From a candidate division KSB1 bacterium (GTDB taxonomy: Bacteria; Zhuqueibacterota; JdFR-76; DREG01): a stretch of 49,529 nucleotides of DNA. The notes under the pieces are model-generated. The model saw nothing but the letters and a program-made list of their open reading frames with translations. It ran no database searches and was not told the origin of the DNA. Positions 8,912 to 47,639 of this stretch are shown piece by piece. The stretch lies in assembly GCA_022566355.1 (NCBI GenBank), contig JADFJB010000016.1, positions 1-49,529 on the forward strand. The letters are read 5' to 3'. Positions within the stretch are counted from its first letter, which is position 1. Each line of letters starts with the position of its first letter. The position numbers and the translations under genes are program-made.

Positions 8912-8942
8912 AAGATAATGATTGCGTTCGTCAGGAGATTTG

Positions 8943-10883: not shown

Positions 10884-10892
10884 TTTCTGAAT

Positions 10893-23787: not shown

Positions 23788-24105
23788 TTATAGGTAATTT
23801 ACAATCCTGCCTTCTGAGTTGATGGTTATTTCATTTGATATCTTAACTATTTTAGTCTCTGTAATTATCCCACCGGGCCACCGTATCCAAATACCTTTTA
23901 CCTCCTCTTGCAATCCTAATACCTGGATCATGGAATCTTGTGACCAATAGCCCGAACCGGCATGAATTTCTCGGGCAGGTCCATAATGGTTAGCAAATTT
24001 AATTCGAATTGTTGCACCTATACCGGCGATGTTTCCATTGGAATCTACTAGTTGAATCCATAATCCGGGTTTGGCGCCAATATTATGGTAGGTCCATTTA
24101 CTCAT
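23788..24105 (-). pseudogene. Orphan C-terminal ASPIC/UnbV domain fragment
   Basis: About 100 residues that match only the last domain of the giant FG-GAP/ASPIC proteins at 30-42 kb: YHNIGAKPGLWIQLVDSNGN, then GPAREIHAGSGYWSQDSMIQ and KGIWIRWPGGIITET, ending VNYL like the 38053-41799 protein. There is no signal peptide and no propeller; homology stops abruptly at residue 5-6 (WTYHN). The reading frame is intact and the key residues are conserved, so the break may be recent or the fragment may still be expressed. I read it as the tail of a deleted fourth paralogue. Confidence 0.8.
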
Positions 24106-26097: not shown

Positions 26098-26239
26098 TAT
26101 TGTTCTTTTGTCTAGCCAAATTTCTCCATAACGAAATATTATTTGGTAATGGGTAAACAACCATAAATTTAAGTTTACTAACAAACATAACTTCTTTCCA
26201 CTTTAATAGTGAAATCAGTAATGGATTTTTTTTAAGGGG

Positions 26240-27143: not shown

Positions 27144-30050
27144 TTAATTCTGTAGACGCAAAACATGTATCCGAATCTTCTGCGCCATTAAGTTTGCACC
27201 TTCGTCTTTTAGACGGTATGCTCGAGTTATTTCTTTGGCTGATTCATCAATTTGGTAGAATTTGTAGGCTGCTTCAGCGATCTTTGCCATTTCTTCTTTT
27301 CCAATGGCCCGGAAGCATAGCATACGGTGATAGTGTGCAATTGCGTCCTCAGGATCAATCGTCAACACCTGTTCGAAAGCCTGCAAAGCTTCTTCATATT
27401 GTTGATTTAGGTATAGCGTTCGTCCTAAATTGCGCCATGTCGCCCTGTCTTCGGGGAATTGTTCCAGTACTCTTCGATAAGCAGCAGCAGCGTTTTCATA
27501 AAGGCCATCCTCCTGTAATACAACCCCCCAAACCCATGCGACTTGCGCATCACCGGGTTTAATCTTCTCACATTTTTTGAGATACTGATAAGCTTTATCG
27601 ATGTTCCCATCCCTTACGGCTACTTTCGCCAGATTCAGTGATCCGTGTAACAGATCGGGTCTGAGTTTTGCAACTTGTTGAAAAGCAATTGATGCTCCCC
27701 TGGTATCTTCTTCCAGCAATAGTCCGATACCATAATCATTGTAACGCATCCAGTCCGATTTTTCATCTGCTAAAATATTAGTCACAATAGCTTTCCGTGT
27801 TTTACTAATTTCCAGGCTAATCTCATCAGAAGCAATTACAGTAACGGGTAAATCCGGTACAGTGTCATATTGTTTAAACCCTTCACGATTTGCATAGAAA
27901 GCAAATTCAGTATACTTACGATCAAACTTTCGCCACAATAAACGTGCTTTAACTTTAATCGAACCTCCGGTTAATCCGTTTGGCATCGTAAATTCGTAAT
28001 GAGCAATATCCGCAGTTCCAGGGCCAATAACGTTGGCAAAAACCGTAACATGAATATCCTGTGCATTACGACGGTGAATTGGATTACCGTCTTTGTCAAC
28101 GATCAAAGCTTTATAAACGTGTGCCATTGGATCAACATGGCCATCTTTATTTAACTCTCCGCTTTTTGCCAACAGATTGCCATTTTCATCTAAGACACTA
28201 ACCTCAAGCCACGCCTCGTTGGAATCGTTGGTGCCGCCTGGGAAAGTGTGGCCGACACCTTTATTGCGAACGACAACATCAAAGGTGACATTCTCCCCTG
28301 CACTCAAAACCGGTTTTTTCCGATTGATGGCCATTACTGGTTTTTTCATACTTTCTGTCTTTAAAGCAAAAATATCGACGCTTAATTTTTCGTCTTGTAA
28401 GAACGATTCTATCTTGTTGATGGTCTCTGTGTCACCTCGTAAAAATGGCAGAGCAGTGTTTACTGCCAGGAAACGATGTGAACGGACAAAGCCGTTTTTC
28501 GCGGCAACATCACCGAGAATCGCAGGTTCCGGTGGCATGTGGCAATCCTGGCACAGACGTTTTTGGGCAGGCAGGTAAAAAGTCCTGGAAGCATTAAGCG
28601 CAACTCCACTGTCATGCCAATTGTCGAATTCATCCTGCCCACGGAGCCATCGGTAATTATTGACAGGTTCAGTCAAACTGACCTTATGACAGGTCGCACA
28701 ATATTCACTTTTCTTAAAAAACGGTTTCAGCATCTGACGTTTATGGACAGTAGGTTTGGCTTTGATAATAGCATCATGAATAAAAGCTCCCATACTTCCT
28801 TCTTTGGCATTTGCAAATAGGTAAGGGTCCTCTTGCTCATCGGCGATGTTATAATTGCCATTTCCCGTTTGATTGTGGATTTGATCGATAGCATGACAAG
28901 CCAAACAGGTTAATCCTGCTTGAGCTTCCGGTGAATTACGGTTGATCGGTTTATCCATAGCTCCGGCCAGCATAAGGGCTGGATCATGGCAACCGCTGCA
29001 CCACTTACTTTTAACCATCCCGACTCTGTCTTTAGTCTCGGGAAAACTTTTGATATGTTTTTCTACCCAGACATTTGGCTGAGTCGCATTTCTTCGCAAA
29101 TCTTCAATTGTTGCTTCATAAAAAGGATTATTAAAAGATGCAAATCGATGTGCAGATGTAGCCCATTGGTCTACAATATCTGCATGACAACGGTTGCATG
29201 TTTCTGCTCCTATCCGGGTGTCTTTGACAAAACCGAATTCTTTTATTTCATCCTCATGTATTGTCATCGACCCCAAATCGTCCCGGGTGATAATTCTCGA
29301 AGGTAAATAACCGCCCGAAGTTGTAGTTGCTGCAGATGGGAAGAAAGGACTACCCGGAGGAACAAATCCGGTGGGAACAAACGGCGATTCGGAGAATTTG
29401 GTCACATCGCGGTTTTTTGCACCCGGTCCATCATACAATCCCTTATCAAGGGCAATTTGAGCTTCCTGGGTTCTGATAATCCCACGGTTAGTAAACCCGT
29501 GCCAGGTTACTAAAACCAAAACGAGAGCAACTACGGTTAAGAAGAATCTCTTATATTTTATTCCAGTCGGTCGTGTATAACTCACAAATCGATGGGTAAT
29601 ATAACCGGCTATGGCAAGTGTACCACAAACAACGTGAGCCCACCATGCCCATTGGTTATCCCGACTGGCTGATTCAGTCAGAATGAATAGTCCGGTCACA
29701 GCCAGAACTATACCTGTGGCAACAAAAGAAATCCCGGAAAAAATGCTGGCATTATGGCGTCGGCGCCAAACTTTGCGTAAATGGGCAATTGCGAAACCCG
29801 CCATCAGGGTAATCAAGAGTAGTCCTACGCCAGTGTGAGTCAATACCATAATTTGGAATAATTGCGGAAGGGAGGTTTTTCCTGCTGAAAAGAAACGCCA
29901 ATTGAGAGAATCGGCGATTCGGTTGATAAGCAAGTAGGACGTATTGGCTATAATAAAACCTGCCAGAACCAGGCTGATCACCAGAGTGTTTTTTAAGTTA
30001 ACCGTCAATATAGACGGTAGAAATTGTCTTTTCTTCTTTTTACGAGCCAT
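27144..30050 (-). CDS. Membrane multihaem cytochrome c with TPR domain
   Basis: 968 residues in three parts. Residues 1-185: about five membrane helices with histidines at 72, 90, 139, 153 and 184; the pairs 72/139 and 90/153 could hold two b-haems in helices 2 and 4. Residues 280-510: five CxxCH c-haem sites at 285 (CNRCH), 351 (CSGCH), 382 (CLACH), 451 (CATCH) and 500 (CQDCH), resembling the cytochrome c554/c' group. About 550-720 is a beta-rich segment, and about 780-930 is TPR repeats. The likely role is moving electrons between the quinone pool and the periplasm or surface. It begins 10 bp after an FG-GAP/ASPIC gene on the same strand, so it is probably co-transcribed. Confidence 0.85.
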   Translation of the reverse strand: MARKKKKRQFLPSILTVNLKNTLVISLVLAGFIIANTSYLLINRIADSLNWRFFSAGKTSLPQLFQIMVLTHTGVGLLLITLMAGFAIAHLRKVWRRRHNASIFSGISFVATGIVLAVTGLFILTESASRDNQWAWWAHVVCGTLAIAGYITHRFVSYTRPTGIKYKRFFLTVVALVLVLVTWHGFTNRGIIRTQEAQIALDKGLYDGPGAKNRDVTKFSESPFVPTGFVPPGSPFFPSAATTTSGGYLPSRIITRDDLGSMTIHEDEIKEFGFVKDTRIGAETCNRCHADIVDQWATSAHRFASFNNPFYEATIEDLRRNATQPNVWVEKHIKSFPETKDRVGMVKSKWCSGCHDPALMLAGAMDKPINRNSPEAQAGLTCLACHAIDQIHNQTGNGNYNIADEQEDPYLFANAKEGSMGAFIHDAIIKAKPTVHKRQMLKPFFKKSEYCATCHKVSLTEPVNNYRWLRGQDEFDNWHDSGVALNASRTFYLPAQKRLCQDCHMPPEPAILGDVAAKNGFVRSHRFLAVNTALPFLRGDTETINKIESFLQDEKLSVDIFALKTESMKKPVMAINRKKPVLSAGENVTFDVVVRNKGVGHTFPGGTNDSNEAWLEVSVLDENGNLLAKSGELNKDGHVDPMAHVYKALIVDKDGNPIHRRNAQDIHVTVFANVIGPGTADIAHYEFTMPNGLTGGSIKVKARLLWRKFDRKYTEFAFYANREGFKQYDTVPDLPVTVIASDEISLEISKTRKAIVTNILADEKSDWMRYNDYGIGLLLEEDTRGASIAFQQVAKLRPDLLHGSLNLAKVAVRDGNIDKAYQYLKKCEKIKPGDAQVAWVWGVVLQEDGLYENAAAAYRRVLEQFPEDRATWRNLGRTLYLNQQYEEALQAFEQVLTIDPEDAIAHYHRMLCFRAIGKEEMAKIAEAAYKFYQIDESAKEITRAYRLKDEGANLMAQKIRIHVLRLQN

Positions 30051-30060
30051 TTAAATTTTA

Positions 30061-33000
30061 TTATAATTTATAACTAATTAAAATCTCAGTCGGATTTCCT
30101 ATTAATGGAGTTTGTGTTATTTTCCCATTCGGCCAGCGTACCCACACACCTTTAGGATTATCACGCAAGCCCATAACCTGAACAACAGAATTTTGAGAAA
30201 GATAACCCGAGCCTGCGTGAATCTCTCTTGCAGGACCAAAACCATTAATATATTCCATTCGGATAATAGACCCAATACCATAGGGATTTCCTTTCGGACC
30301 ATTTAACCTCACTCGCAATCCCGGTTTTGCTCCAATGTTTCGGTATAGTTTTGTTTCAGCGCCATTCTGTGTTATAACCAGATCTACACGACCATCGTGA
30401 TTAAAATCACCTAATGCAGCGCCCCTTTGTTCGCCATAAACCTTAATGCCGGAAACCTGGCCTGGAACCACTTCGAGTTTTCCAGTACCATCGCCTTTTA
30501 GCCACAGTCCTCGCCCAGCATCGCCCCTGTCTTTTTCTAATATCGTTGGAAAGAAGTTTTGGCTTATAAAAACATCATCATGGCCGTCTCCATTAAAATC
30601 TGCAACCCCTACATAAAAAGCTGGCGTAAACTGCGCCTCAATGGGTAATGCCACTGCTTCGAAGTGATCTTTTCGATTTAAAAAGACCATATGTCGCAGT
30701 TCACTGGCGATTAGTTGATGTGCTTGTTTTAAAGATTCACCTATGATATCATCCACACTGGCTGCAGAAAAACGCTTGTAATTTGGTGTTCGTGGACGAA
30801 CATAAGGGATAGCTTGAGAAAGCGTTGTTAAGTCTCGCCTGGGAATCACCTGATTCATCACTGGATCAAAATGCGCCTCGATGATATCAAGAGTGCCATT
30901 GCCGTCGAAATCGTCATAGTAAATTCGCAATGGATGTTCAAAGCTAGCAGAATATTCATTGTTTAAGCCCCAATTTGTAGCGATAATATCCAGGTAACCA
31001 TCCTCATCCAAATCACCTGTCGTAACACCATTCCACCACCCCTTATATCGATCCAATCCTAAATCATTTGTCGCGTTCGTGAAATGACCATTTTGGTTAC
31101 GAAAAACCATAACTGACCCCCATTCAACAGCCAAAATCAAATCTGAGCTGCCGTTGCCATCAATATCACTAAAAACGGCGCCAGAAACCATACCTAAAAA
31201 CTTAAATTGTTTTGAATTTTTTTCATCGATTGTAAAGCGGCCATTGTCATTTTTATACAATATGGAGGAGGCTGGTTCAGGATAGCGCCCTGGTACTGTT
31301 CGTCCTCCGACAAATAAATCCAGATCTCCATCATCATCATAATCGGCCATGGCCATGGGGCCCAGGCTAGAACCATTTCCTATTACTTTTGTTGAGTTTG
31401 CAAATGTTTTACGCTCAAAATCGTACGACATAATAAATGAGTTGGCGGGCTGTAAACTCTCATAGTTTGAGAAACCAACTAACACGAATGTCGAACTATT
31501 ATCCTTTGTCCAACCGAGAACGGAGGTTTGATCAAATTGAGTCTTTTGAACCAAACGAGTATCTTGAATCCGAGTAAATCCTTGTTTACCATCGTTACGA
31601 TAAAAAGCAAGCTGACCGCCTTTTCCACTAGAGATGATTAAATCGTCATCTTTATCTCCATCGATATCGTACCAGGCGACACCCGGTCCGACCTGGCTGA
31701 GTCTTTTAGGAAGTAATGGTTGGCGGGAAAAGTCATCAAAAGTATCTTCGTGATGCTTATGATTAATTAGATTGCTGACGTCTTCAAAATAAAAGGAAGG
31801 TGCAATTGATGAATCCGGGCTTGACGAATCATCTATTTTGGCATATGCCTCAAAGATTTCATAAATGCAGTTTGGCTTGACGTTCTTAATCTCACTTACT
31901 TTACCACTCCGCCAGACTACCTCGATTGTGAGCAAATTTTCAGCGCTACCTGCAGCAAATGTAACCATTGGATCTGAACTAGAGAGATAGATTCCACCAC
32001 AGGTAACTTCTTTAGCCTGGGGAACAGGACCGCCCAAGACTCGAATTTTTGCACCGATGCCCTGTGTGTTTGGGCTCAAGCCTCTCAGGCGTACAGCAAT
32101 TCGCGGCGCACCAGACTTGTTTCGATAAATACCTGCGACTTCATTTAGTCTGTTTGTGGCTAAATCCAAATCTCCATCATTATCAAAATCAGCAAGGGCC
32201 ATACCCCAGGTTAAATCAGGATTTGTAAAACCCCAACTTGAGCTCACATCTTCAAAGGTTAAATCGCCTTTATTTCGAAAAGCAACATTGGGAGTTAGAT
32301 AACTTGGGTATAATGCTGTCATCTGGCGATAATCATAACCGAATGCAGAAAGTCCCTGAACTCGATTATTTGTGTCTGTATCTTCGAAGTCATACAACTG
32401 ACCATTTGTTGTAATAATATCCTCATACCCATCAAGGTCGACATCAACAAAAATAACAGACCATGTCCACTCGGAAGCTTGAACGCCGCTCAACTGACCA
32501 ATTTCTGCATAAGTATTATCCCCCCGATTTACAAACAAGGTATTCCGCTTTATCTGCGGTCTATTATTGATTTGTCCAATTGCTGTAGGAGGTGTTTTAG
32601 TAGTATTTGTTTGTTGCATTCGCCGTTGATAATTCCTTGCTAACATATCTATTAGTATAAAATCTAAATCTCCATCCCTATCGATGTCAGAAAAATTCAT
32701 AGCCATGGTAAATTTACTGGTGTGGCGAATTGCTAGCTTTTCGATAGCTTGAAAACGTCCAGTTCCATCATTAATCCAAATTCGGTCAGGGCTGGAGTAG
32801 TCGTTACAGACATAGATGTCTGGATCTCCATCATTATCCATATCTTGGAATCTCGGCAAAAGTCCCCAATCTTTCAGCTCAGATATGGGATTTCCAGATT
32901 CGTCGAGAAATCGTCCATCCGTAAATGAAGCTTTTTCAAAGTGGCCTTTACCATCGTTGAGATATAAGAAATCAGGCTCGGCGTTCTCAATAAGTATGTG

Positions 33001-33801
33001 CCGGTCCCCATTTGTTTCGACGCGATAATGCTCTTTAAACTTTGGTGTGATCTCATATGTACCGCCCACTTTTTTAGCAACCAGGTTTTGGGTTCTTTCC
33101 TGGGGTGAATAAAGATTTTCTACAGATTTCTTTTTGAAGTTGGTCATATAAAGGTCAATATCTCCATCACCATCAATGTCTGCATAAGCCATTGAAGTAC
33201 TACCACCGCTCGATTTCAATCCTGCAGCATCGGTTACCTCGGTGAAATTTCCAAAACCATCATTTACATAACAGGCATTTGGCCCTCCAAGTGATGTGAC
33301 GATTAGATCGAGGTCAAAGTCTCCATCTATATCTACAAGTGCGACACCAGTTGAAAAACGATCTGGACAAGCAACTCCGGCTTGCTTTGTAATATCTTTA
33401 AACTTCCAATCACCAAGATTTTTATACAAAACGTTTGGACAATCGAGACAATTAAAATACACATCTATCAAACCATCACCATCGACATCTCCAGTGGCCA
33501 CACCAGATCCACCCAGGAGAAACCGATTATCTGCAATTTGTTCAGGAGTTAGCTTGTTTGAAAAAGTGATTTCTGTTTTGGATGATGGTAATAATTCAAA
33601 CCCAGGTTGGCCCGACTCAAGGCTCGGAAGTTCTGACCAACGATATCCAGCGCCTTCGTGCCATTCTATGGATTTATCTGGCCAGATTAGTACTATTAGG
33701 CAAAGAGCAGCAACCAAACCAGCAATAATAGCAATTTTAGATATGGAATTTAAATTTATGAGTTTAATATTTAACCACCTTCCTGTTCTTAGACCATCCA
33801 T
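30061..33801 (-). CDS. Giant FG-GAP/ASPIC (CRTAC1-like) protein, copy 3
   Basis: 1246 residues. An N-terminal hydrophobic anchor or signal (about 22-42) is followed by a conserved IEWHEGAGYRWSEL motif. Then two similar units: FG-GAP/VCBS propeller with calcium loops such as DVDGDGLIDVYF and DIDGDGDIDLYM, closed by an ASPIC/UnbV domain at about 563-650; and a second propeller that starts with HHEDTFDDFSRQPLLPKRLS and ends in a second ASPIC domain at about 1159-1246. No catalytic motif is visible. By family it should be exported and act in adhesion or protein contacts at the envelope. It is 21 bp after its paralogue and 10 bp before the cytochrome gene. Confidence 0.85.
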   Translation of the reverse strand: MDGLRTGRWLNIKLINLNSISKIAIIAGLVAALCLIVLIWPDKSIEWHEGAGYRWSELPSLESGQPGFELLPSSKTEITFSNKLTPEQIADNRFLLGGSGVATGDVDGDGLIDVYFNCLDCPNVLYKNLGDWKFKDITKQAGVACPDRFSTGVALVDIDGDFDLDLIVTSLGGPNACYVNDGFGNFTEVTDAAGLKSSGGSTSMAYADIDGDGDIDLYMTNFKKKSVENLYSPQERTQNLVAKKVGGTYEITPKFKEHYRVETNGDRHILIENAEPDFLYLNDGKGHFEKASFTDGRFLDESGNPISELKDWGLLPRFQDMDNDGDPDIYVCNDYSSPDRIWINDGTGRFQAIEKLAIRHTSKFTMAMNFSDIDRDGDLDFILIDMLARNYQRRMQQTNTTKTPPTAIGQINNRPQIKRNTLFVNRGDNTYAEIGQLSGVQASEWTWSVIFVDVDLDGYEDIITTNGQLYDFEDTDTNNRVQGLSAFGYDYRQMTALYPSYLTPNVAFRNKGDLTFEDVSSSWGFTNPDLTWGMALADFDNDGDLDLATNRLNEVAGIYRNKSGAPRIAVRLRGLSPNTQGIGAKIRVLGGPVPQAKEVTCGGIYLSSSDPMVTFAAGSAENLLTIEVVWRSGKVSEIKNVKPNCIYEIFEAYAKIDDSSSPDSSIAPSFYFEDVSNLINHKHHEDTFDDFSRQPLLPKRLSQVGPGVAWYDIDGDKDDDLIISSGKGGQLAFYRNDGKQGFTRIQDTRLVQKTQFDQTSVLGWTKDNSSTFVLVGFSNYESLQPANSFIMSYDFERKTFANSTKVIGNGSSLGPMAMADYDDDGDLDLFVGGRTVPGRYPEPASSILYKNDNGRFTIDEKNSKQFKFLGMVSGAVFSDIDGNGSSDLILAVEWGSVMVFRNQNGHFTNATNDLGLDRYKGWWNGVTTGDLDEDGYLDIIATNWGLNNEYSASFEHPLRIYYDDFDGNGTLDIIEAHFDPVMNQVIPRRDLTTLSQAIPYVRPRTPNYKRFSAASVDDIIGESLKQAHQLIASELRHMVFLNRKDHFEAVALPIEAQFTPAFYVGVADFNGDGHDDVFISQNFFPTILEKDRGDAGRGLWLKGDGTGKLEVVPGQVSGIKVYGEQRGAALGDFNHDGRVDLVITQNGAETKLYRNIGAKPGLRVRLNGPKGNPYGIGSIIRMEYINGFGPAREIHAGSGYLSQNSVVQVMGLRDNPKGVWVRWPNGKITQTPLIGNPTEILISYKL

Positions 33802-33822
33802 TTTGTCAGATTGGAAAAGACT

Positions 33823-37575: not shown

Positions 37576-37825
37576 TCTGCCTCCGTCATGGTTCTAAGTG
37601 GGGAGTATGGTTACATTCTCGCAATCCAAGATTTATTAATTACGCCTCTTTAAAAGCTATATAAATGGATATTATGTAACGTGTTGTATGGCGAGCTTCC
37701 AGAAGATTTTAGATATTGGGAGAAAATTTACCATTAATCCGAAATCCGCAACCTTATTACAATTATTCTACTATAAGAGAAGAATGTGACCGATGGTCGA
37801 TACAACCTTATACTTGACTTAGCAG

Positions 37826-38047
37826 TTATACGATTGCTACCTCACTCTTAATCATCATGTGGCTAGTGTTAGAGCCACTACCTTCAACTGGATCCACTTC
37901 TTCAGGTCTTTCGTCGGGATTTTCCTTATCTCGGAGTTTAGGGTCAACAAGATCACCGCCACACGAAATGAAAGTGGTGAGCAAAAGGAGTGTGAGTCCT
38001 AATACCAATAGCCATTTAAGTTTTTTCAATTTATTAATTTTAATCAT
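37826..38047 (-). CDS. Small lipoprotein of 73 residues
   Basis: Not recognised. The sequence shows a basic start (IKINKLKKLKW), a hydrophobic stretch (LLVLGLTLLLLTTF) and a lipobox ending ISCGG, with the lipidated cysteine near 29. The mature part is about 45 residues, very acidic and proline-rich (NPDERPEEVDPVEGSGS), and probably unstructured. The gene starts 5 bp after the stop of the giant protein at 38053, which argues that it is real and translated in the same operon. It may anchor or space a partner at the membrane. It is small enough that a chance frame is possible, but the signal peptide is convincing. Confidence 0.65.
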   Translation of the reverse strand: MIKINKLKKLKWLLVLGLTLLLLTTFISCGGDLVDPKLRDKENPDERPEEVDPVEGSGSNTSHMMIKSEVAIV

Positions 38048-38052
38048 GAAGC

Positions 38053-41000
38053 TTACTCCTTTTCATCAACACTATTCTGAGATTCTTTTAAATAATTTAC
38101 TTTTAATTTACCATGATAATCAACTGTTATTTCATTTACTTTGTTATTGATGGAAAGGATTGTAATCTTTCCACCAGGCCAGCGCACCCAGACTCCCTTA
38201 ACTTGATCAAATCGTCCCATGACTTGAACCATCGAATCTTGCGACCAGTATCCGGAACCTAGGTGAACCTCCCGTGCAGGACCGAAGCCATCCTCGTAGA
38301 CTAATCGGATCGTTGCGCCTACGCCATTACGATTCCCCTTTGGCCCAGCTAGTCGAACACGTAATCCTGGCTTAGCGCCAATATTATGATATAGTTTCGT
38401 GGGCGCGCCATTTTGCGAAACCACCAAATCAACCCGGCCATCGCCATCATAATCAGAAAGTCCGGCGCCGCGTTGTTCTCCATATATTTTAATTCCGGAA
38501 ACTTGACCAGCAATTGGTTCCAACGCGCCACTGCCATCACCTTTCAACCAGAGTCCCAAGCCTGCATCAGAACGTGAAGTCTCTACATGTGTTGAAAAAA
38601 AATTCTGACTTATGAAAACATCCTCATGGCCGTCACCATCGAAATCTGATACACCAACGTAAAACGCCGGCGAAAATTGAGCTTCTCTCGGCATTTCAAA
38701 TGCTTCAAATCGATCGCCTCGATTCATAAAAACAGTGTGAGCAAGTGTATTTGCGCTAAGGTTGCCAGCTAGCTTAAGTCTAGGACCAAATATTTCCTTG
38801 ACACTTAAGCGGCTGTACATCTCATGATTCAACCTCCGTCTGCGGGCTATTGGCATGGTTCTTTGCATCCAAAATAAATTGCGTTCAGGAACCAGTTTTT
38901 GCATGTCTGGAGCAAAGTAAGCTTCCACGATATCCAGTGTTCCATTATTTTCAAAGTCACGGTAGAAAATCTGCAAAGGGTAGGTATCATTATATCGATT
39001 TTGATACCTACTATTTAAGCCCCAATTCGTCGCGATAATATCCAGTTTGCCATCTTCATTAAGATCTCCGGTGGTTACACCATGCCACCACCCAAGCAAT
39101 TCACTTAATCCTAGCTCTTCTGTTGCATCTGAGAAGAGCCCATTCTCATTACGAAAAATCATCACAGGACCCCATTCAACCGCTAAAATAAGGTCCGCGT
39201 CTCCATCTCCATCAAAATCACTAAATATACTTCCCGATACCAAACCAAGTTCCTTGAATAGTGAATTATTTGTTGTATCTAATTTAAACTCACCGTTCTC
39301 ATTTAGATATAACCTTGATGAAGCCGGTTCCGGATAACGTCCAGGTATAACTCTTCCGCCAACAAATAGATCCAGGTCACCATCCAAATCATAATCTGCC
39401 ATTGACATTGGACCCGTACTAGAAATATCCCCTTTTAATTGATTACTATTCTCCATTCGCATGCTAATAGAATTATGCTGAGAAACATAGGAGTTACTCA
39501 CCCTGAGTTGTTCCAAATTTGAATGACCCACAAACAGGTGATTCTTACCATCTGCACCGGACCAAACCAGCAAAGTGCTTTGATCATCTTGACTTTTCCC
39601 GCGTAAAGACGGGTCTTCTATTCTATCAAATCCGCCTTTCCCATTATTCCGGAAATAGGCCATATTGCCCCCTTTGCCAGTACCTATCAATAAATCATCA
39701 TCACCATCTTGGTCGAAGTCAAACCATGTAACTCCGGGCCCTAACCGGCTTAATTTATTCGGCAACAATGGTTGTTGACGAAAATCATCATACTCGTCCT
39801 CATGGTGCACGTGATCGATCAAATGACTTACATCTTCAAAGAATGGTTTTGAAGGCACTAGAGTCGCCTTTGTACTGTCAGTTAGATGGGTGCTGTATTC
39901 GAATATTTCATAGATTCGGTTAGCTTTAACATGGTCTATCACACTGAGTTTACCACTGCGCCATTTCACCTCAATAGACAAGCTATTTTCAGTTCCACCA
40001 GTTGCAAACATGGATAAAGGATCGGAGCTTGAAAGATATCTACCAGCACAGATGACTTCTTTGCTCTGGGGAACCGGTCCACCTAAAACCCTGATCTTGG
40101 CGCCGATACCCTGTGTATTTGGGGGAAGACCGCGCAAACGTACTGCCAGGCGTGGCGCAACAGATTCATTGCGGTACACACCCGCCGGGGCATCCAATCT
40201 GTTGATAACAACATCCAGATCACCGTCGTTGTCAAAATCTCCGGTCGCCATTCCATGGCTGATATCTATAGAAGAAAATCCCCATTTCTCACCAACCTCT
40301 TCGAAGGTTAGATCTCCACGATTGCGAAAGGCTACATTTGGAACTTTAAGACTGGGGAACGTGAAGATTTTTCTGCGCCACGTATCTAAGCTGAGATATC
40401 TTGTTAATCTTATTCGATCTAGGGTGTCACCGTCAAGGGCGTCATAATAATGGCCGGTTGTAATGAGGACGTCTTCGTAGCCATCAAGATCAACGTCGAG
40501 GAATAGTGGCGACCAAGACCACTCCGAAGCCTCAATGCCGCTGAACTGGGCTATTTCCGCATACGTACCATCTCCTCTATTCATAAACAGGGTGTTACGT
40601 GAGTACTGGGGACGATTGTCTATTGAACCGATGGGATGCGGTATGGGCTCTCTGTTGACCATCTGTGTTTGACGTCGTTGATGATCCCGGCTAAGCATAT
40701 CCAAAAGCAAGAAATCCAGATCGCCATCGCGGTCACCATCAGCAAAGTCAACACCCATGGTTGACCAACTAGTGTTTCGAATCGCTAGCCTAGCAATGGC
40801 TTGAAAATTTCCGCTTCCGTCATTCATCCAGATTCGGTCCGGACTCTTAAAATCATTGCAAACATAAATGTCCGGGTCGCCGTCTTCGTCAATGTCTTGG
40901 AAACGAACCGTTAAGCCCCAATCTTTCGGCTCCGATATTGGTTTACCTTTTTCATTCAAGAACCTTCCATCTGTGAAGGAAACGGCGCTAAAATTCCCGC

Positions 41001-41799
41001 TCCCATCATTGAGATAAAGTCTATCGGGCTCGCCGGTTTCGAAACGAGTAAGAATATTATTATTCAAAAAACTGAGAGCATAGTGCTCCCGAAATTCCGG
41101 CACGATTTCATAATCGTTGCCTACCTTTTTTACAATTCGATCGAATTGGAGGTCTTGGGGAAGGTACTCATCGGTAATCGTGCTTTTCTTGTAGTTGGTG
41201 ATGTACAGATCAAGATCGTTGTCGCCATCTATGTCGGCAAGTGCAAGTGTGGTAGCGCCGGAATTGCCTATCAGTCCGGCCGTCTTGGTAACGTCTGTAA
41301 AATTGCCTTGACCATCGTTTAAAAAGCAGCTGTTCGGTCCGCCCAAAGTCGTTACCAGGAGATCAAGATCTCCGTCACCGTCAATGTCGGCAAGCGCCGT
41401 GCCGGTTGAAAACTGCCCTGGACACGCAACACCGGATACTATTGCGATATCTTCAAACTTCCAGTTTCCGAGATTCTTATATAAGGCGTTGGGACCGTTG
41501 AGTCGGCATAGGTAAATATCTGCCAAACCATCACCATCCACGTCTCCAACCGCAACTCCGGAGCCATTCAGGAGATGCTGGTTATCAGTGATTTGTTCCT
41601 TGGTCAGATTGTTGGCAAAGTTGATTCCTGTTTCTGAGGGTGTTAGCTGCTTGAAGCCGTCTCGGCCAAACCATGGAATAGAAAGCTCAGCCCATCGGAA
41701 TCCGTCTTCTTCATGCCATGTGATTTTTTGCGTGGGCCAAAAATAAATGACAACCAGCACTGCCAATACCAAAATCGCAACAACTGAGAACTTCTTCAT
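38053..41799 (-). CDS. Giant FG-GAP/ASPIC (CRTAC1-like) protein, copy 1
   Basis: 1248 residues from ATG 41799 (MKKFSVVAILVLAVLVVIYF), a good signal peptide or anchor; the frame is open to 41883 but the extra part overlaps the upstream gene and does not look like a protein start. Same architecture as the two paralogues: ITWHEEDGFRWAEL motif, propeller, ASPIC domain at about 546-630 (APRLAVRLRGLPPNTQGIGA), second propeller from EDEYDDFRQQPLLPNKLSRL, and final ASPIC domain from about 1143. The second-half motif resembles long VCBS-repeat proteins found next to SusCD pairs in Bacteroidota. It follows susC, susD and a small lipoprotein on the same strand. Confidence 0.85.
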   Translation of the reverse strand: MKKFSVVAILVLAVLVVIYFWPTQKITWHEEDGFRWAELSIPWFGRDGFKQLTPSETGINFANNLTKEQITDNQHLLNGSGVAVGDVDGDGLADIYLCRLNGPNALYKNLGNWKFEDIAIVSGVACPGQFSTGTALADIDGDGDLDLLVTTLGGPNSCFLNDGQGNFTDVTKTAGLIGNSGATTLALADIDGDNDLDLYITNYKKSTITDEYLPQDLQFDRIVKKVGNDYEIVPEFREHYALSFLNNNILTRFETGEPDRLYLNDGSGNFSAVSFTDGRFLNEKGKPISEPKDWGLTVRFQDIDEDGDPDIYVCNDFKSPDRIWMNDGSGNFQAIARLAIRNTSWSTMGVDFADGDRDGDLDFLLLDMLSRDHQRRQTQMVNREPIPHPIGSIDNRPQYSRNTLFMNRGDGTYAEIAQFSGIEASEWSWSPLFLDVDLDGYEDVLITTGHYYDALDGDTLDRIRLTRYLSLDTWRRKIFTFPSLKVPNVAFRNRGDLTFEEVGEKWGFSSIDISHGMATGDFDNDGDLDVVINRLDAPAGVYRNESVAPRLAVRLRGLPPNTQGIGAKIRVLGGPVPQSKEVICAGRYLSSSDPLSMFATGGTENSLSIEVKWRSGKLSVIDHVKANRIYEIFEYSTHLTDSTKATLVPSKPFFEDVSHLIDHVHHEDEYDDFRQQPLLPNKLSRLGPGVTWFDFDQDGDDDLLIGTGKGGNMAYFRNNGKGGFDRIEDPSLRGKSQDDQSTLLVWSGADGKNHLFVGHSNLEQLRVSNSYVSQHNSISMRMENSNQLKGDISSTGPMSMADYDLDGDLDLFVGGRVIPGRYPEPASSRLYLNENGEFKLDTTNNSLFKELGLVSGSIFSDFDGDGDADLILAVEWGPVMIFRNENGLFSDATEELGLSELLGWWHGVTTGDLNEDGKLDIIATNWGLNSRYQNRYNDTYPLQIFYRDFENNGTLDIVEAYFAPDMQKLVPERNLFWMQRTMPIARRRRLNHEMYSRLSVKEIFGPRLKLAGNLSANTLAHTVFMNRGDRFEAFEMPREAQFSPAFYVGVSDFDGDGHEDVFISQNFFSTHVETSRSDAGLGLWLKGDGSGALEPIAGQVSGIKIYGEQRGAGLSDYDGDGRVDLVVSQNGAPTKLYHNIGAKPGLRVRLAGPKGNRNGVGATIRLVYEDGFGPAREVHLGSGYWSQDSMVQVMGRFDQVKGVWVRWPGGKITILSINNKVNEITVDYHGKLKVNYLKESQNSVDEKE

Positions 41800-41860
41800 A
41801 ATCTGTTTTGTCTGGAGGTCGGTGGCTTTTGTGACGGATGTGGGAGCAGTGCGAGGTCCG

Positions 41861-42340
41861 TCAGTACAGTAATCTGAACTCATGCCTTAGGTCGCCGGCA
41901 ATCCGGTCAAAATATTGCTTTAGCTCTTTACTCATAAGGCCAGGACGCCATCCCTCACTTTCTTCATATTGAAACTCATTTTCTGCATAAAGGTGAATTT
42001 TGTACTGGCCGATATGGCGGGCGGTGGCTCGCAGAATAATTCGCGTTTGGGCCGCCATGATTCGCATCTCAACTTCATCGGCAAACAGTGACCGTTCTTT
42101 CCATGCCGTTTCGAAGTAAATCTGCCGGGGACTCTCTTCTTGGCGACTCACCTGGTATCGATATTTATTAAGCAGAATATGTTCGGTGACCCCAAAAATT
42201 TCGGCGCGATACGAAATGCCTATTTGGGCGGAATAACTCTTTGTACCCGAGCTGCTTTTTCCGGGACCTGAACCGGCACACCCGGTAGACAACACGATTA
42301 AAAATAAAAAAGACCATCGACAAATTATGGATTTACTCAT
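41861..42340 (-). CDS. Small lipoprotein beside susD, paralogue of 22838-23341
   Basis: Unknown function. From the ATG at 42340 it has 159 residues, with signal peptide SFLFLIVLSTGC and the anchored cysteine near 21. I prefer this start to one at 42424 because the signal peptide then begins properly. The mature part aligns with the lipoprotein at 22838-23341 (IYFETAWKERSLFADEVEM, TRIILRATAR, YAENEF, and a C-terminal GDLRHEF). It lies between susD and the first giant FG-GAP/ASPIC gene, 61 bp before the latter, and probably belongs to that envelope system. Confidence 0.75.
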   Translation of the reverse strand: MSKSIICRWSFLFLIVLSTGCAGSGPGKSSSGTKSYSAQIGISYRAEIFGVTEHILLNKYRYQVSRQEESPRQIYFETAWKERSLFADEVEMRIMAAQTRIILRATARHIGQYKIHLYAENEFQYEESEGWRPGLMSKELKQYFDRIAGDLRHEFRLLY

Positions 42341-42472
42341 CGTTTTATCCCATGAGTTATACGGTTGAGCAAATTTAACAAAAAATACTGAAAACGTAAA
42401 GTTGAAAACAAGAAAGGCCACCATGAATATGATGGCCTTTCTGTTACACTTATGAACTGTTGAAGCACTTTT

Positions 42473-44086
42473 TTAGCGCCTCAGCCTCCATTCTTTCGGG
42501 TCTTCGCCAGCCGGACGAACGGCGATCTTCGGAGCCCCGCCGGTCTGTCCAACACCACCGAAGCTGTAAAGCATTAGCTGCAGTGTTTCCAAATCCTTGG
42601 CCGGAACCGGAAACTGGATCGGATTTCCGGGTGTCAGCTCGCCCCAGCCTCTTTTTTCCCAGTATTCCCGGCCGGAAAAGGTGCCTAATAAATCTACCAG
42701 CTTTTCGTATTTTAGGACCGACCACAGCGTCGCACCCTTATCGTGCTGTGGCTGCAGTGGATCACTTATGCTGCCTGCTGCTAAGGATGCAGCAGAGTCA
42801 TAGCCGCCATCGATAACATGCGTCCTATCCAAAAGTGCGGCTATCTCGGCCGTACTGCCTCCTGTATTTAGTAGTGCCTCGGCTCGTATAAAATCGAGCT
42901 CGCTCGGGCGGAAAAGAACGATGTCCGATGCATTGTTACTTGCGCTGATATGGTCAAAACGGGTATGTCCATAGCGTGAAAACCCATAACGTTCACGAAT
43001 GAATGTGGTATTACCGGTCTGCCCGAACTGTGTACCGGGATTTTGTGTACCATCAGGAGAAAGGGTACCATCCCAAATGCGCTTGTCGGAGCTTTGAAAG
43101 ATAAACTCATCTCGATCGTTGATGTTTAAGTTAATCCAGTCATCGTAGTCAGTCCCCGTATCCGACGGTCCGATGAGTTTATAGTCGACGCGTTGCCAGG
43201 TGCCCCAATTGATAGGGCCGGAATACCAATGCGTGCCGCTATACCAGGTCGAACTGCGACCGGCACCATCGCCAAGGATTGAGAAGTCCTCGGTTATTCC
43301 CATGTCTAAGTGCGTCATAACCGTGTTCCAGGCCACGTTTGAGCGTTCGGTTCTATCGCGTGCCACCAGAACCATATAACGTGCAATAAAGGAATGCGCG
43401 ACTTGCGCTAATTCCGCGAAGGTCCACGCTTTCTTATTGATCCAGGTATCCGGCAGTGTGAAAGCAGGGTTTGCCCTAAAAATGACAATGGCTGCCTCTA
43501 GCTGTTCGATTGCTGCAGCCATGACTTCAGTGTAAGGTTGCAGCACCAGTTCGTCAGTATTGAGATCAACATTTTCATCCAGAATGAATCCCTGGTCGAA
43601 CATGAGGGCTAACCAGCCGTGCGCCAGTCCCTGTACAAATTTCCCGAACCCTATAGCGCGTGTGTCTTTGTCGGCGCCAAGAGTTACATTCCCAGCCTGA
43701 ATATTGCGAATGCCGTCACTGGCGGCCGATATAGCGCCATACAAATCGAACCAGGGTTGTTCTACAACGCCCCTGGTGCTCGAAGTTGATGTATTGTTGA
43801 ACTCTATACGCGGCTCCTCAGACATCACACCCATACCGAAGTTCCCCCAACCACAAGTATAAACATCGGCAGGCATGGCCAGTGACATGTTCGGCGTTGA
43901 ACTTTGAATAGCGTCGAACCAGGATAGAAACGAGCCCGCGATCAGCGATTCGATATCGCTTGGTGTGGCCAGAGCCCTTGCCTCGTCAGGATTATTTTGG
44001 TTTACCACATCAAGACTCTGGCAGCTTGAAAGTAGTACAGTTACAGTAAGCAGTGCGATCATACTGCTTGAAATTAACTTTTTCAT
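42473..44086 (-). CDS. SusD/RagB-family outer membrane lipoprotein
   Basis: Surface lipoprotein that caps a SusC-type transporter and binds its substrate. Length is 537 residues from ATG 44086, which has GGAGG at 44092-44096; the frame is open to 44200 but that overlaps susC. The signal peptide ends in the lipobox LLSSCQS, then LDVVNQNNPDEARALATPSD, the usual SusD beginning. Helical TPR-like blocks follow, and the C-terminal half has FRPSELDFIRAEALLNTGG, the typical substrate-cap region. The substrate cannot be read from sequence; no glycoside hydrolase, sulfatase or peptidase is nearby. Confidence 0.88.
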   Translation of the reverse strand: MKKLISSSMIALLTVTVLLSSCQSLDVVNQNNPDEARALATPSDIESLIAGSFLSWFDAIQSSTPNMSLAMPADVYTCGWGNFGMGVMSEEPRIEFNNTSTSSTRGVVEQPWFDLYGAISAASDGIRNIQAGNVTLGADKDTRAIGFGKFVQGLAHGWLALMFDQGFILDENVDLNTDELVLQPYTEVMAAAIEQLEAAIVIFRANPAFTLPDTWINKKAWTFAELAQVAHSFIARYMVLVARDRTERSNVAWNTVMTHLDMGITEDFSILGDGAGRSSTWYSGTHWYSGPINWGTWQRVDYKLIGPSDTGTDYDDWINLNINDRDEFIFQSSDKRIWDGTLSPDGTQNPGTQFGQTGNTTFIRERYGFSRYGHTRFDHISASNNASDIVLFRPSELDFIRAEALLNTGGSTAEIAALLDRTHVIDGGYDSAASLAAGSISDPLQPQHDKGATLWSVLKYEKLVDLLGTFSGREYWEKRGWGELTPGNPIQFPVPAKDLETLQLMLYSFGGVGQTGGAPKIAVRPAGEDPKEWRLRR

Positions 44087-44140
44087 AATTCCTCCATGGG
44101 GTTGATACCGAAAAAGTCGAGATTTTTTCGCCTCGCCCAC

Positions 44141-44169
44141 CTTGTTCCCAAGTTTAACTTGGGAACAAG
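44141..44169 (-). promoter_or_regulatory. Perfect hairpin between susC and susD
   Basis: CTTGTTCCCAAG (44141-44152) and CTTGGGAACAAG (44158-44169) form a perfect 12-bp stem with a 5-base loop, in the 97-bp gap after the susC stop. On the minus strand it is not directly followed by a T run. It could be a processing or stabilising structure setting different levels of SusC and SusD, or an intrinsic attenuator. A weaker 4-bp stem with A-rich loop follows it. Confidence 0.7.
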
Positions 44170-44183
44170 ATAGCGCGCTTCCT

Positions 44184-47100
44184 TTAAAGTACAATCTCAA
44201 TAAATCCGGTTAAGGTTCTAAAATTTGGATAATTAAAGGCATCGTATCTTGTTACAACGGCCGAGCCTCCTTGGTCGTTACTTGAACTGACACCAACTTC
44301 TGGATCAGTGCCCCTATCGTAGTTATCAATTGAGAACAAGTTGCGGCCCACAACGCCTATAGAGAGCTTATCCAAAAGTCCGCCGAAAATACCGCTCAAC
44401 TGATTTCGTTTAAAGGTGTATTTAACGGATAGCTCTCGCAGCTTAATGAAGCTGCCGTCAAATACAAAGGAGTCTTCAGCATCTTGCACCCAATCGTAGT
44501 AGCGTGTGGGTTTTTTGAGCTCATCCGATTTGCCGGTTTGATCGACGTTAGCCGACCTTTGTTCTATGCCATAGCCCCACTGTTCAGTCAGACTCCAGAC
44601 GTCACCGCCCACTTGTGATTCCAGCAGACCATAAATGGAGAATCCTTTCCATTTAAAGTTGGAGTAAAAGCTCCAGTTGAAGTCTGGCACGGTGCTGCCC
44701 ATAAGAAATTGCTTTGTACCCTCCGCATCTTCGAATAAAACCGGCATACCCCACTCGTAGACGTCACCGTCTGAAAGGGTAGTCGAGGTACCCCACAGGG
44801 TCTTACTGATGCCGTCCCTGAAGGTGTTGCCATCACCCACCCAGACGGCATAGCCTTCGTCATTGACATCAAACTGGGAGAGCTCAGATTCGTTGAGGCC
44901 TCGTGGAAGCAAATCCTGTACGTTACGAGTCATAGTTTCTCCGAAAAGCGCGCCAAAATCTTCTCCTTCTTCGATACGAAATACGGATACGCTTTGAAAA
45001 GGCGGGTTATAGATGTAGGGGGCGACATCCAGTTTGGAAATTATTTGACGCGTGCGATCGAAGTTAATGCCAAAAGTTAAGCCCATGTTTTTCTTCTGAA
45101 TAAGCACGCCTTGCAAGCTCACTTCCCAAGTGCTTGTTTCCAGGGTGCCGGCATTTTGCCATTGAGTGGTATAGCCCACGTAGGAGGCTAACGGCACATC
45201 TAACAACTGGTTCTCGATGGTGGTTTCCGCGCGGGTTAACTCCAGGGAGAACCTATCCAGAAATGCCAGATCCACGCCAAGCTCCAGCTCTTTTGCAAAC
45301 TCCGGCTTCAGATTCGAATTGCCAAGGGTGTTTTTTACGACATTGCCTCCGCTTATTGTCCAGGTTTCAAACCTTGCGAAGAAATTAGGCCGTCCGCCGG
45401 CGGTGCCATAGGAGCCACGTATTTTGAATTCCTGGATACCGGAAAATGGCCACCATCCTTCTTGAGATAGACGATAAGCTCCACTAGCACGATAGTATGT
45501 ATGCCATCTTTCATCCGGACCGAACAGTGAACTGCCGTCACGACGAACAAGAAAATCCCCGATATAGCGATCCTTATAGTCAAAGCTAGTGATATTGGAG
45601 TAACCTTGAGATCGAACTTCCCGTATCTGGGAATTGATATTGGACTTCAGTGGATCCGCCGCGGCCAGATCAATCACACCTCTGACAACAAAATCGTTAC
45701 CCTCTACAAAGGTGTCCTGGAATTCCGTCCTCTCGAATAGCCCTGTTACTTTCGATCTGATCCGGAGATTGTCATTGAGGAAAGAATAATGCATAAAGGC
45801 TGTAGCGCTGCCGTTAAGGGCCTCATCAAATGCCGGGAACTTCTGAAAACGGCCCTGGCCGACATCCAAATCAAAACCGTCTTGGTAACCTATCCGGAAG
45901 AAACGGTTTCGCTCCCTGTTGGAACGATCATAACTGAAATTGCCGTCTATTTCAAGCCAATCAAATGGTTCATAGGTCAGGGTCCCACCGCCCATAACAC
46001 GAGTTTGTGAATTTTTCCGACTCGCTGTCGCGGGCTCATAAAGAGGATTATCCCTGGCGGCATAGGGGTCCGGTTGAATGAAGAGTTCACCAGCCACATC
46101 CAGCGGAATGCCATCTGGGAAATTATTTTGTGCATTGTATACAGATGTTAGCGTCCCCACTTCCAGATGCCTTGCCGTCAGGTCGGCATCTGCGGAGATA
46201 AAGGCTATGCCGAAGAAGGCGGAACCGGGGCCGGTTGTAATGTCGTCTCGATCGACATTGGCGAAGAAGGCACTGATCGAGATGTTCAGATTATTGCGAA
46301 ACCGGTGATCCACGCCGAGACGCACTGTTTGACGTTTATAGCCGTCCAGCCCTTCGATCAGGCCTTGTTGCCCTAGATTGCCAAGAGAAATGCTGAAATT
46401 GGTATCTCCCATGTTGCGACTAATGGACACTGAATTGCTGACGAATGTGCCGGGCTCGAAAAACTGGTTAAAGTTATCGACGAAGTTGGCGCCACCGCTT
46501 ATCCTTTGCAGACCCACAGGCTGACCTGTTGCCGGATCCAGTACGGAACTAAGCATTTCATTGAAGACGACATCTCCCGTGGAAACCCACTTATAGGGAT
46601 TGTCAGAGAAAAATATCTGGCCTATTCTATCATCGCTCGGATTATCCTTATCGTAGTTACCATCATACCTATCTCCAACACGAAGGCCGCCTCTCCTGGG
46701 ATCGACAAAGTCACCCTCGTTATCGATAAAGTCACCTGGAGTAACTTTGATGCCATTTGCGTCAGTATAGTTATTTGTTCCTTCATGGATGCGGAACCAG
46801 TGGCTCCTGTTCAAAGGGTATTCTTTCTGGAGAAAGTTAAAGCCGAACTCGTTCCGTATTCTAATTCTGGTTTGATTTAAAGCCAGGTTTTTGCCTCGGT
46901 TCATGGTAATGTTGACTACGCCGTTGGCTGCCCGTGATCCGTAAAGGGAAGCCCCGGCTGCGCCCTTGATCACTTCGATACTGGCAATGTCATCTGCGTT
47001 AATATCGGAAAGCGGGCTGCCGGAAATCGAAGGGTCAATTATTACACCATCTATAATGTAAAGAGGATCCTGAGACCTGCCTTCGGAATTGATGCTGGTT

Positions 47101-47639
47101 GGGGCTCTTAGCATAACCGACGCGTCCACTCCGGGTTCACCACTGCCTTGAATAACTTTTACTCCGGCAATCTTTCCCCGAAGTGCATGTTCCGGAGAGG
47201 AGGCAGAAACATGCTCCAGAAGCTCCCGGTCGATTCGTCCAACCGAAAAGGCTAGTTTTGTTTTCGGAGTTTCATCTACCAGGCCGGTGACGATTATCGC
47301 ATCCATATTCAGTGCATCGATAACCAGTGAAAAGTCAATATTGTGGGTTCCGGGTGATAATGTGAACTTTTCTACTTTAGTTCGGTAGCCTATGAACCTG
47401 ACTTCTAACCGCACCTCCTGGCTTCGAACTCCGCGAGCAGGTACCGTAAAGCTGTATTCACCATTAACATCGGCTGCTGTACCCAGGTTGGTTAACTGGA
47501 TGAAAATATTTGCGCCCGGTAATGCTTCTCCGGTTTCGTCTGTTATCTTACCAGAGATTACAGCCTCTCCTTGGGCCAAAACTGCGCCCGGAAGAAGCAC
47601 CAGACAAAGAAAAAATGCTAAATAGTTTTTTATTCGCAT
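44184..47639 (-). CDS. SusC/RagA-family TonB-dependent outer membrane transporter
   Basis: 22-strand beta-barrel transporter that imports a substrate captured with SusD, energised by TonB. Length is 1151 residues. Visible in order: signal peptide (AFFLCLVLLPGAVLAQ), CarboxypepD-regulatory-like domain (ISGKITDETGEALPGANIFI), plug with the SusC signature (DPLYIIDGVIIDPSIS, then ASIEVIKGAAGASLYGSRA and ANGVVNIT), and a long barrel ending in an aromatic-type strand (FRTLTGFIEIVL). AAGGAG lies 7 bases before the ATG. No N-terminal STN domain or anti-sigma partner is visible, so regulation by a FecIR-type system is not evident. First gene of the minus-strand locus. Confidence 0.92.
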   Translation of the reverse strand: MRIKNYLAFFLCLVLLPGAVLAQGEAVISGKITDETGEALPGANIFIQLTNLGTAADVNGEYSFTVPARGVRSQEVRLEVRFIGYRTKVEKFTLSPGTHNIDFSLVIDALNMDAIIVTGLVDETPKTKLAFSVGRIDRELLEHVSASSPEHALRGKIAGVKVIQGSGEPGVDASVMLRAPTSINSEGRSQDPLYIIDGVIIDPSISGSPLSDINADDIASIEVIKGAAGASLYGSRAANGVVNITMNRGKNLALNQTRIRIRNEFGFNFLQKEYPLNRSHWFRIHEGTNNYTDANGIKVTPGDFIDNEGDFVDPRRGGLRVGDRYDGNYDKDNPSDDRIGQIFFSDNPYKWVSTGDVVFNEMLSSVLDPATGQPVGLQRISGGANFVDNFNQFFEPGTFVSNSVSISRNMGDTNFSISLGNLGQQGLIEGLDGYKRQTVRLGVDHRFRNNLNISISAFFANVDRDDITTGPGSAFFGIAFISADADLTARHLEVGTLTSVYNAQNNFPDGIPLDVAGELFIQPDPYAARDNPLYEPATASRKNSQTRVMGGGTLTYEPFDWLEIDGNFSYDRSNRERNRFFRIGYQDGFDLDVGQGRFQKFPAFDEALNGSATAFMHYSFLNDNLRIRSKVTGLFERTEFQDTFVEGNDFVVRGVIDLAAADPLKSNINSQIREVRSQGYSNITSFDYKDRYIGDFLVRRDGSSLFGPDERWHTYYRASGAYRLSQEGWWPFSGIQEFKIRGSYGTAGGRPNFFARFETWTISGGNVVKNTLGNSNLKPEFAKELELGVDLAFLDRFSLELTRAETTIENQLLDVPLASYVGYTTQWQNAGTLETSTWEVSLQGVLIQKKNMGLTFGINFDRTRQIISKLDVAPYIYNPPFQSVSVFRIEEGEDFGALFGETMTRNVQDLLPRGLNESELSQFDVNDEGYAVWVGDGNTFRDGISKTLWGTSTTLSDGDVYEWGMPVLFEDAEGTKQFLMGSTVPDFNWSFYSNFKWKGFSIYGLLESQVGGDVWSLTEQWGYGIEQRSANVDQTGKSDELKKPTRYYDWVQDAEDSFVFDGSFIKLRELSVKYTFKRNQLSGIFGGLLDKLSIGVVGRNLFSIDNYDRGTDPEVGVSSSNDQGGSAVVTRYDAFNYPNFRTLTGFIEIVL

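What the first reader, a model, noticed from the sequence alone, without database searches (positions are those of the whole stretch)
27144..47639. A probable operon joining SusCD, three giant ASPIC propeller proteins, lipoproteins and a multihaem cytochrome
Eight genes run in one direction: susC, susD, lipoprotein, giant 1, mini-lipoprotein, giant 2, giant 3, cytochrome. Gaps of 61, 5, 250, 21 and 10 bp after the lipoprotein point to joint expression. Seen: the gene order and domains. Known: SusCD pairs import surface-bound substrates, long VCBS/FG-GAP proteins often neighbour SusCD in Bacteroidota, and multihaem cytochromes move electrons. Inferred: a cell-surface machine that binds a polymer, metal complex or partner through calcium propellers, takes material in through SusCD, and couples this to electron transfer. 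No carbohydrate enzyme is present, so a standard polysaccharide-use locus is unlikely. I do not know a named system with exactly this set.
Basis: partly seen in the sequence, partly recalled or inferred. Interest (0 to 1): 0.78.

Follow-up and report, generated by a model that had tools for sequence, protein, structure and literature searches.

The report
Redox-propeller gene cluster beside SusCD importer
The genes are really there and recur together in other bacteria, but the widely conserved unit is a membrane electron-carrying cytochrome paired with a CRTAC1-type propeller protein, while the SusCD importer next to it appears to be a separate, optional unit.

Summary
The eight genes exist as described (SusC passes TIGR04056; SusD, missed by Pfam, matches SusD folds; three tandem double-CRTAC1 giants; pentahaem cytochrome). 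"One operon" is unlikely: a strong intrinsic terminator follows susD, and similar hairpins with compensatory changes stand there in six genomes from two phyla. The set is no accident: susC–susD–lipoprotein–giants–cytochrome recurs in two KSB1-type relatives and, with strands rearranged, in a Gemmatimonadales genome.

The broad core is different. In 65 of 70 assessable cytochrome loci, from about ten phyla by record title, the cytochrome gene is followed by a single-propeller CRTAC1 protein, often with a 4-bp overlap. No such partner was found in the window's own genome; downstream lies the relic of another CRTAC1 gene. The cytochrome has five predicted transmembrane helices with four near-invariant histidines (two pairs, as in dihaem b), five haem-c sites, a beta domain and TPRs. 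That fits an inner-membrane quinol-linked cytochrome resembling Geobacter CbcL, not a surface protein. I infer that it passes electrons to a periplasmic partner held by CRTAC1 propellers. I found no description of this pair in the searched library. Coupling of import to electron flow is undemonstrated.

The parts
44184..47639 (-). susC: SusC/RagA TonB-linked outer-membrane transporter
   Evidence: TIGR04056 466 bits, cut-off 368; Plug and CarbopepD_reg_2; orthologues 49-51% identical in G035 and G081
42473..44086 (-). susD-like lipoprotein of a divergent family (start corrected from 44200)
   Evidence: no Pfam/NCBIfam match; family alignment A5; Foldseek: all listed matches SusD-like or glycan-binding proteins
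42411..42442 (-). strong intrinsic terminator directly after susD, AGAAAGGCC...GGCCTTTCT then a T-rich tail
   Evidence: dG -24.9, z -5.2; hairpin at the same position in six genomes, 7 of 14 pairs with compensatory change
41861..42340 (-). small lipoprotein (LIP family, 159 aa; start corrected from 42424)
   Evidence: lipobox STGC; six-member family alignment A4; follows susCD in G035, G081, G060, G032, G002, G008
38053..41799 (-). giant 1: tandem double CRTAC1 (FG-GAP propeller + ASPIC) with N-terminal membrane anchor and no lipobox
   Evidence: 60-64% identical relatives in G035 and G081
37826..38047 (-). mini-lipoprotein, 73 aa
   Evidence: lipobox FISC; 49% identical homologue just upstream of the matching giant in G033 (L073 45-209)
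33823..37575 (-). giant 2: double CRTAC1, lipoprotein-like N-terminus
   Evidence: 70% identical to G033
30061..33801 (-). giant 3: double CRTAC1 with N-terminal membrane anchor
   Evidence: 65-66% identical to G033 and G056 copies next to the cytochrome
27144..30050 (-). inner-membrane pentahaem cytochrome: five TM helices with four conserved His, five haem-c sites, beta domain, TPR domain
26300..27019 (-). relic: N-terminal third of a CRTAC1 protein joined to the C-terminal end of a TPR protein, with further stops
   Evidence: blastx 51% to CRTAC_a then 47% to the TPR protein of G035, which are neighbours there; stops visible
23788..24105 (-). C-terminal (ASPIC) stub of a fourth giant
   Evidence: 59% identical to residues 1151-1248 of giant 2; UnbV_ASPIC 35.5 bits
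22838..23341 (-). second copy of the small lipoprotein family (167 aa)
   Evidence: alignment A4

Best explanation
The locus is two neighbouring modules. Module 1 is susC-susD, closed by its own terminator, with the small LIP lipoprotein just beyond: an outer-membrane importer of unknown substrate. Module 2 is a redox module. The cytochrome sits in the inner membrane; a b-type dihaem anchor (His 72/139 and 90/153) would take electrons from the quinol pool and pass them to five periplasmic c-haems. Its TPR domain would dock CRTAC1-type calcium propellers, which hold or position the terminal acceptor or substrate in the periplasm or at the outer membrane. In most relatives that propeller is the single-domain CRTAC1 protein encoded directly after the cytochrome; in this locus the large double-CRTAC1 giants are present and the usual partner is missing. 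Shown: gene order, family membership, conservation of haem ligands, terminator sequence, distribution. Predicted: membrane topology, fold. Inferred: quinol oxidation, direction of electrons, TPR docking, role of the propellers and any functional link to SusCD.
For: CRTAC1 follows the cytochrome in 65 of 80 loci; 10 of the other 15 are contig ends; about half the pairs overlap by 4 bp. Five CxxCH in 41 of 42 aligned relatives, the 42nd having four plus a CX4CH; H72, H139 and H153 invariant and H90 98%; their places in helices 2 and 4 give two matched pairs (model pLDDT 85; alignment A10). Weak cytochrome b561 matches in 7 of 26 TM domains; haem part weakly matches PDB 5ze8, a cytochrome c552. 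Two separate units: hairpin after susD in six genomes, divergent susCD in L238, each module found without the other. A second, different pairing of CRTAC1 with multihaem subunits is reported for hydrazine-synthase-like clusters (PMC12758564) and seen here in G002. A tree of the cytochrome largely follows phyla (10 label changes, 7 the minimum, shuffled mean 21.4), so it looks old.
Against: No redox activity, quinone binding or CRTAC1 contact has been measured. The b-haem assignment rests on four conserved histidines and weak profile matches; no solved homologue of the TM domain was found. In this genome the usual CRTAC1 partner was not found and the downstream end is decayed, so the module may be partly broken here; the assembly is a 213-contig draft. 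The repeated presence of this SusCD family beside the module suggests some functional link that I cannot explain.
Confidence: 0.5

Rival explanations
1. One reading: one operon encodes a cell-surface machine that binds a substrate by propellers, imports it by SusCD and couples this to electron transfer.
For: Same gene set and order in G035 and G081, and the same set in a Gemmatimonadales genome; short gaps from the lipoprotein to the cytochrome.
Against: Terminator after susD with hairpins in six genomes; divergent susCD in L238; cytochrome predicted inner-membrane; modules occur apart.
Confidence: 0.1
2. The giants are surface glycan-binding proteins of a polysaccharide-use locus that has lost its enzymes, and the cytochrome is a chance neighbour.
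For: Distant giants (31-35% identity) are lipoproteins beside Pfam-positive SusCD with GH31, GH97, GH4 or GH3 enzymes in G002, G042 and G040 (in G042 the enzyme was placed by size and synteny only).
Against: The close giants form their own class, two of the three here lack a lipobox, and they flank the same cytochrome in G033, G035, G056, G081 and some Gemmatimonadota, so the cytochrome is not a chance neighbour.
Confidence: 0.15
3. The cytochrome is itself a periplasmic enzyme (nitrogen or metal redox chemistry, c554/HAO-like), with CRTAC1 as a structural subunit, comparable to the hydrazine-synthase-like clusters.
For: Cytochrome_C554 match; CRTAC1 gene between hydrazine-synthase-like subunits (PMC12758564; L082 with HZS_alpha Pfam 94 bits).
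Against: Seven further highly conserved His (301, 392, 425, 436, 525, 601, 644) outside the CxxCH motifs and TM helices are enough for bis-His ligation of all five haems; no catalytic haem motif was identified; the cytochrome has no HZS domain match.
Confidence: 0.15
4. In this particular genome the module is decaying and no longer works.
For: CRTAC1/TPR fusion relic with stops, stub of a fourth giant, no intact CRTAC1b found in the genome.
Against: The cytochrome and three giants are full-length, 57-72% identical to close relatives and keep all haem sites.
Confidence: 0.1

Closest known systems
Geobacter sulfurreducens CbcL (inner-membrane quinone oxidoreductase; PMC9129911)
   Same: One polypeptide with a transmembrane, here putatively dihaem-b, domain joined to a periplasmic multihaem-c domain with conserved additional histidines.
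   Different: CbcL has six TM helices and nine c-haems. Here five TM helices, five c-haems, plus a beta domain and TPR repeats and a CRTAC1 partner gene. Homology was not tested directly; the b561 profile match is weak.
Hydrazine-synthase-like alpha / CRTAC1 / beta-gamma clusters (PMC12758564)
   Same: A CRTAC1 FG-GAP protein encoded with multihaem subunits that carry cytochrome c554 domains.
   Different: The subunits are different: HZS_alpha and a cytochrome-propeller fusion, no TM-TPR pentahaem cytochrome.
SusCD-type importers of Bacteroidota
   Same: SusC passes TIGR04056; SusD fold recovered.
   Different: SusD family not recognised by Pfam, no carbohydrate enzymes, its own recurrent lipoprotein and terminator.
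CRTAC1/ASPIC-UnbV propeller proteins (cartilage acidic protein 1, PDB 9etn)
   Same: FG-GAP propeller followed by an ASPIC domain; sequence match E 2.9e-21.
   Different: The giants are two such units in tandem, with membrane anchors or lipoprotein-like signals.

Membership tests
SusCD importer | SusC/RagA TonB-dependent transporter | tested here: met
   TIGR04056 466.3 bits, cut-off 368.25
SusCD importer | Adjacent SusD-fold lipoprotein | tested here: met
   Foldseek of the model returns SusD-like or glycan-binding proteins in all 50 listed rows, model pLDDT only 57; lipobox LSSC
Polysaccharide utilisation locus | Carbohydrate-active enzymes beside SusCD | tested here: not met
   No CAZyme domain among the window genes scanned; the contig ends 1.9 kb upstream of susC
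Single operon of eight genes | No internal terminator; common transcript | tested here: not met
   Terminator after susD with hairpins at that place in six genomes; the transcript itself is not testable here
CbcL-type inner-membrane b/c cytochrome | Transmembrane dihaem-b domain | tested here: inconclusive
   Five predicted helices, four near-invariant His in two matched pairs; weak b561 profile match only
CbcL-type inner-membrane b/c cytochrome | Periplasmic multihaem c domain, bis-His | tested here: inconclusive
   Five CxxCH and enough conserved His; number of haems differs from nine; ligation not measured
CbcL-type inner-membrane b/c cytochrome | Quinone oxidoreductase activity | not testable with these tools
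   Needs biochemistry
Outer-membrane MtrC/OmcA-type surface cytochrome | Lipoprotein or secreted, no TM bundle, about ten haems | tested here: not met
   Five TM helices, five haems; MtrC/F domain match just above cut-off, 32 against 30 bits
CRTAC1 family (giants) | FG-GAP propeller plus ASPIC/UnbV domain | tested here: met
   Two ASPIC stretches per giant, FG-GAP_3 at E 1.8e-74 or better

The most novel reading that the evidence does not exclude
The cytochrome and its CRTAC1 partner are an undescribed, old and widespread respiratory complex: a quinol-linked b2-c5-TPR cytochrome handing electrons to, or through, a calcium-propeller protein, present in about ten phyla, which in KSB1 and some Gemmatimonadota has gained giant double propellers and sits beside a dedicated SusCD importer.
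Probability: 0.4. Interest if true: 0.8.

Novelty: new variant of a known kind. Interest (0 to 1): 0.6.

Why it matters
CRTAC1/ASPIC-UnbV proteins are numerous in environmental bacteria and have no assigned bacterial function that I could find. A conserved, often overlapping gene pair with a membrane pentahaem cytochrome gives this family a testable role in periplasmic electron transfer, and gives an unnamed cytochrome architecture a candidate partner. It also shows that this SusCD family and the giant propellers are add-ons, which narrows what should be tested in the laboratory.

Tried and rejected
Single-operon reading: rejected because of the terminator after susD and the divergent arrangement in L238. 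An apparent cytochrome-CRTAC1 fusion of 1557 aa in L195: rejected, the N-terminal part is an out-of-frame reading in GC-rich DNA. SusD by profile-profile comparison against a Pfam-positive SusD alignment: only 53% probability over 60 columns, replaced by structure comparison. Sequence search of the TM domain against solved structures: nothing useful. Foldseek of the whole cytochrome: the listed matches are TPR proteins, uninformative for the haem part. Upstream neighbours of the cytochrome as a clue to function: variable (tRNA synthetase, FGE-sulfatase domain, GMC oxidoreductase, FecCD and others), so the pair is a stand-alone unit. Literature: no paper in the library holds both UnbV and multiheme; only one holds the phrase 'CRTAC1 family protein'.
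Full report
What is there. The eight genes are present in the order and spacing given. Better starts are ATG 44086 for susD, 42340 for the lipoprotein and 41799 for giant 1. SusC is over the TIGR04056 cut-off. SusD is invisible to Pfam, NCBIfam and PDB sequence search, but its predicted structure, though of low confidence (pLDDT 57), matches SusD-like or surface glycan-binding proteins in all 50 rows listed. Each giant is two CRTAC1 units in tandem. The cytochrome has five CxxCH and C-terminal TPRs.

Is it one operon? Directly after susD stands a 14-pair hairpin followed by a T-rich tail (dG -24.9 kcal/mol, z -5.2). Hairpins at the same place were found in G035, G081, G060 and G032 (same phylum) and G100 (Gemmatimonadales); half of the 14 pairs show compensatory changes. 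G002 and G008 showed no match in a simple pattern scan. The susCD genes are thus most likely a separate transcript. From the lipoprotein to the cytochrome the gaps are short except for 250 bp before giant 2; transcripts were not testable.

Does the set recur? Yes. G035 (another family of the phylum) has susC, susD, lipoprotein, CRTAC1, TPR protein, giant, giant, cytochrome, CRTAC1, ASPIC-TPR. G081 has susC, susD, two lipoproteins, giant, a thioredoxin-like gene (ResA/TlpA-like), giant, CRTAC1, a 650-aa protein, cytochrome, a transposase-like gene, CRTAC1, ASPIC-TPR. G060 has susD-lipoprotein-giant on a short contig. G033 and G056 have giants and cytochrome; in G033 they lie at the ends of two contigs, and neither genome gave a SusD-family match at E 0.001. 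In L238/L159, one Gemmatimonadales contig, susC and susD of this family (38-44% identical) point away from giant-CRTAC1-giant, which converge on ASPIC-TPR, CRTAC1b and the cytochrome.

The wider core. A CRTAC1b gene follows in 65; ten contigs end first; five lack it within the limit used, of which two have it further along. About half of the 61 gene-called pairs overlap by 4 bp. ASPIC-TPR genes are near 20 of the 80, giants near 6, and this SusD family near none within the 10-kb flanks at the thresholds used; the susCD of the L159 contig lie beyond its stored flank. The cytochrome is in 18 of 200 Gemmatimonadota species sampled. Its tree mostly follows phyla.

In the window's own genome no intact CRTAC1b was found. 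Just downstream of the cytochrome is a relic in which the N-terminal part of a CRTAC1_a gene runs into the end of the TPR gene; these two are neighbours in G035 and, by homology, in G056. Further down are a stub of a fourth giant and a second lipoprotein copy.

The cytochrome. The model (pLDDT 85) has helices 17-48, 63-97, 100-126, 130-156 and 163-187, then the haem region, a beta domain (556-749) and TPRs (764-956). A basic N-terminus and five helices put the haem domain in the periplasm (inference). In 42 sequences H72, H139 and H153 are invariant and H90 is 98% conserved. H72 and H139 lie the same distance into helices 2 and 4, H90 and H153 near the other ends: two likely haem-b sites. TM domains of 7 of 26 relatives hit cytochrome b561 weakly (best E 2e-4), so the assignment is probable, not shown. 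Additional conserved His (301, 392, 425, 436, 525, 601, 644) are enough for bis-His ligation of five c-haems. CbcL of Geobacter is the nearest described architecture I know (PMC9129911).

The giants. Giants 1 and 3 start with a hydrophobic anchor and no lipobox, giant 2 looks like a lipoprotein; both types recur in relatives. The distantly related giants (31-35%) are lipoproteins, and in G002 and G040 they sit in real polysaccharide loci with GH31, GH97, GH4 or GH3 genes. Close giants also occur away from the cytochrome in Gemmatimonadota, and in G045 without a close cytochrome, so the association is frequent but not obligatory.

Mechanism and limits. I propose quinol to b-haems to c-haems to a periplasmic acceptor held by CRTAC1 propellers, with TPR docking. 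Only the anatomy and conservation are shown. A parallel pairing of CRTAC1 with multihaem subunits in hydrazine-synthase-like clusters (PMC12758564), found also in G002 of the same family as the window, supports CRTAC1 as a recurrent partner of multihaem proteins. Why SusCD sits here repeatedly is unexplained.

Noticed in passing
window 26300-27019: Relic gene: N-terminal part of a CRTAC1 gene joined to the C-terminal end of a neighbouring TPR gene, with stops; apparently an internal deletion across two genes.
   Followed up: yes
window 22838-24105: C-terminal stub of a fourth giant beside a second copy of the small lipoprotein, separated from the main cluster by an intact gene for a chorismate-binding enzyme/aminotransferase IV fusion (24283-26184).
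   Followed up: partly
L082 4470-11104 (G002:C21, same family as the window genome): Hydrazine-synthase-like cluster: HZS_alpha protein (Pfam 94 bits), CRTAC1 protein, and a 10-CxxCH cytochrome-propeller protein, followed by a periplasmic binding protein gene.
   Followed up: partly
L083, L084, L079, L080, L085: Distant double-CRTAC1 lipoproteins beside SusCD, in G002 and G040 with glycoside hydrolases; a class of giant putative surface proteins apparently without a name.
   Followed up: partly
L202 5136-5597 (G081): ResA/TlpA-like thiol-disulfide oxidoreductase encoded between the two giants, a type of protein also used in cytochrome c maturation.
   Followed up: no
window 1-13919: nuoA-N-like complex I gene run on the plus strand with an apparently short NuoG (526 aa); then aminopeptidase, ffh, rpsP, rimM, trmD, Mrp-type ATPase, a sigma-70 factor and a NUDIX gene up to 22.8 kb.
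   Followed up: no
window 37576-37825: 250-bp gap between the mini-lipoprotein and giant 2, the only long gap downstream of the terminator; could hold a promoter.
   Followed up: no
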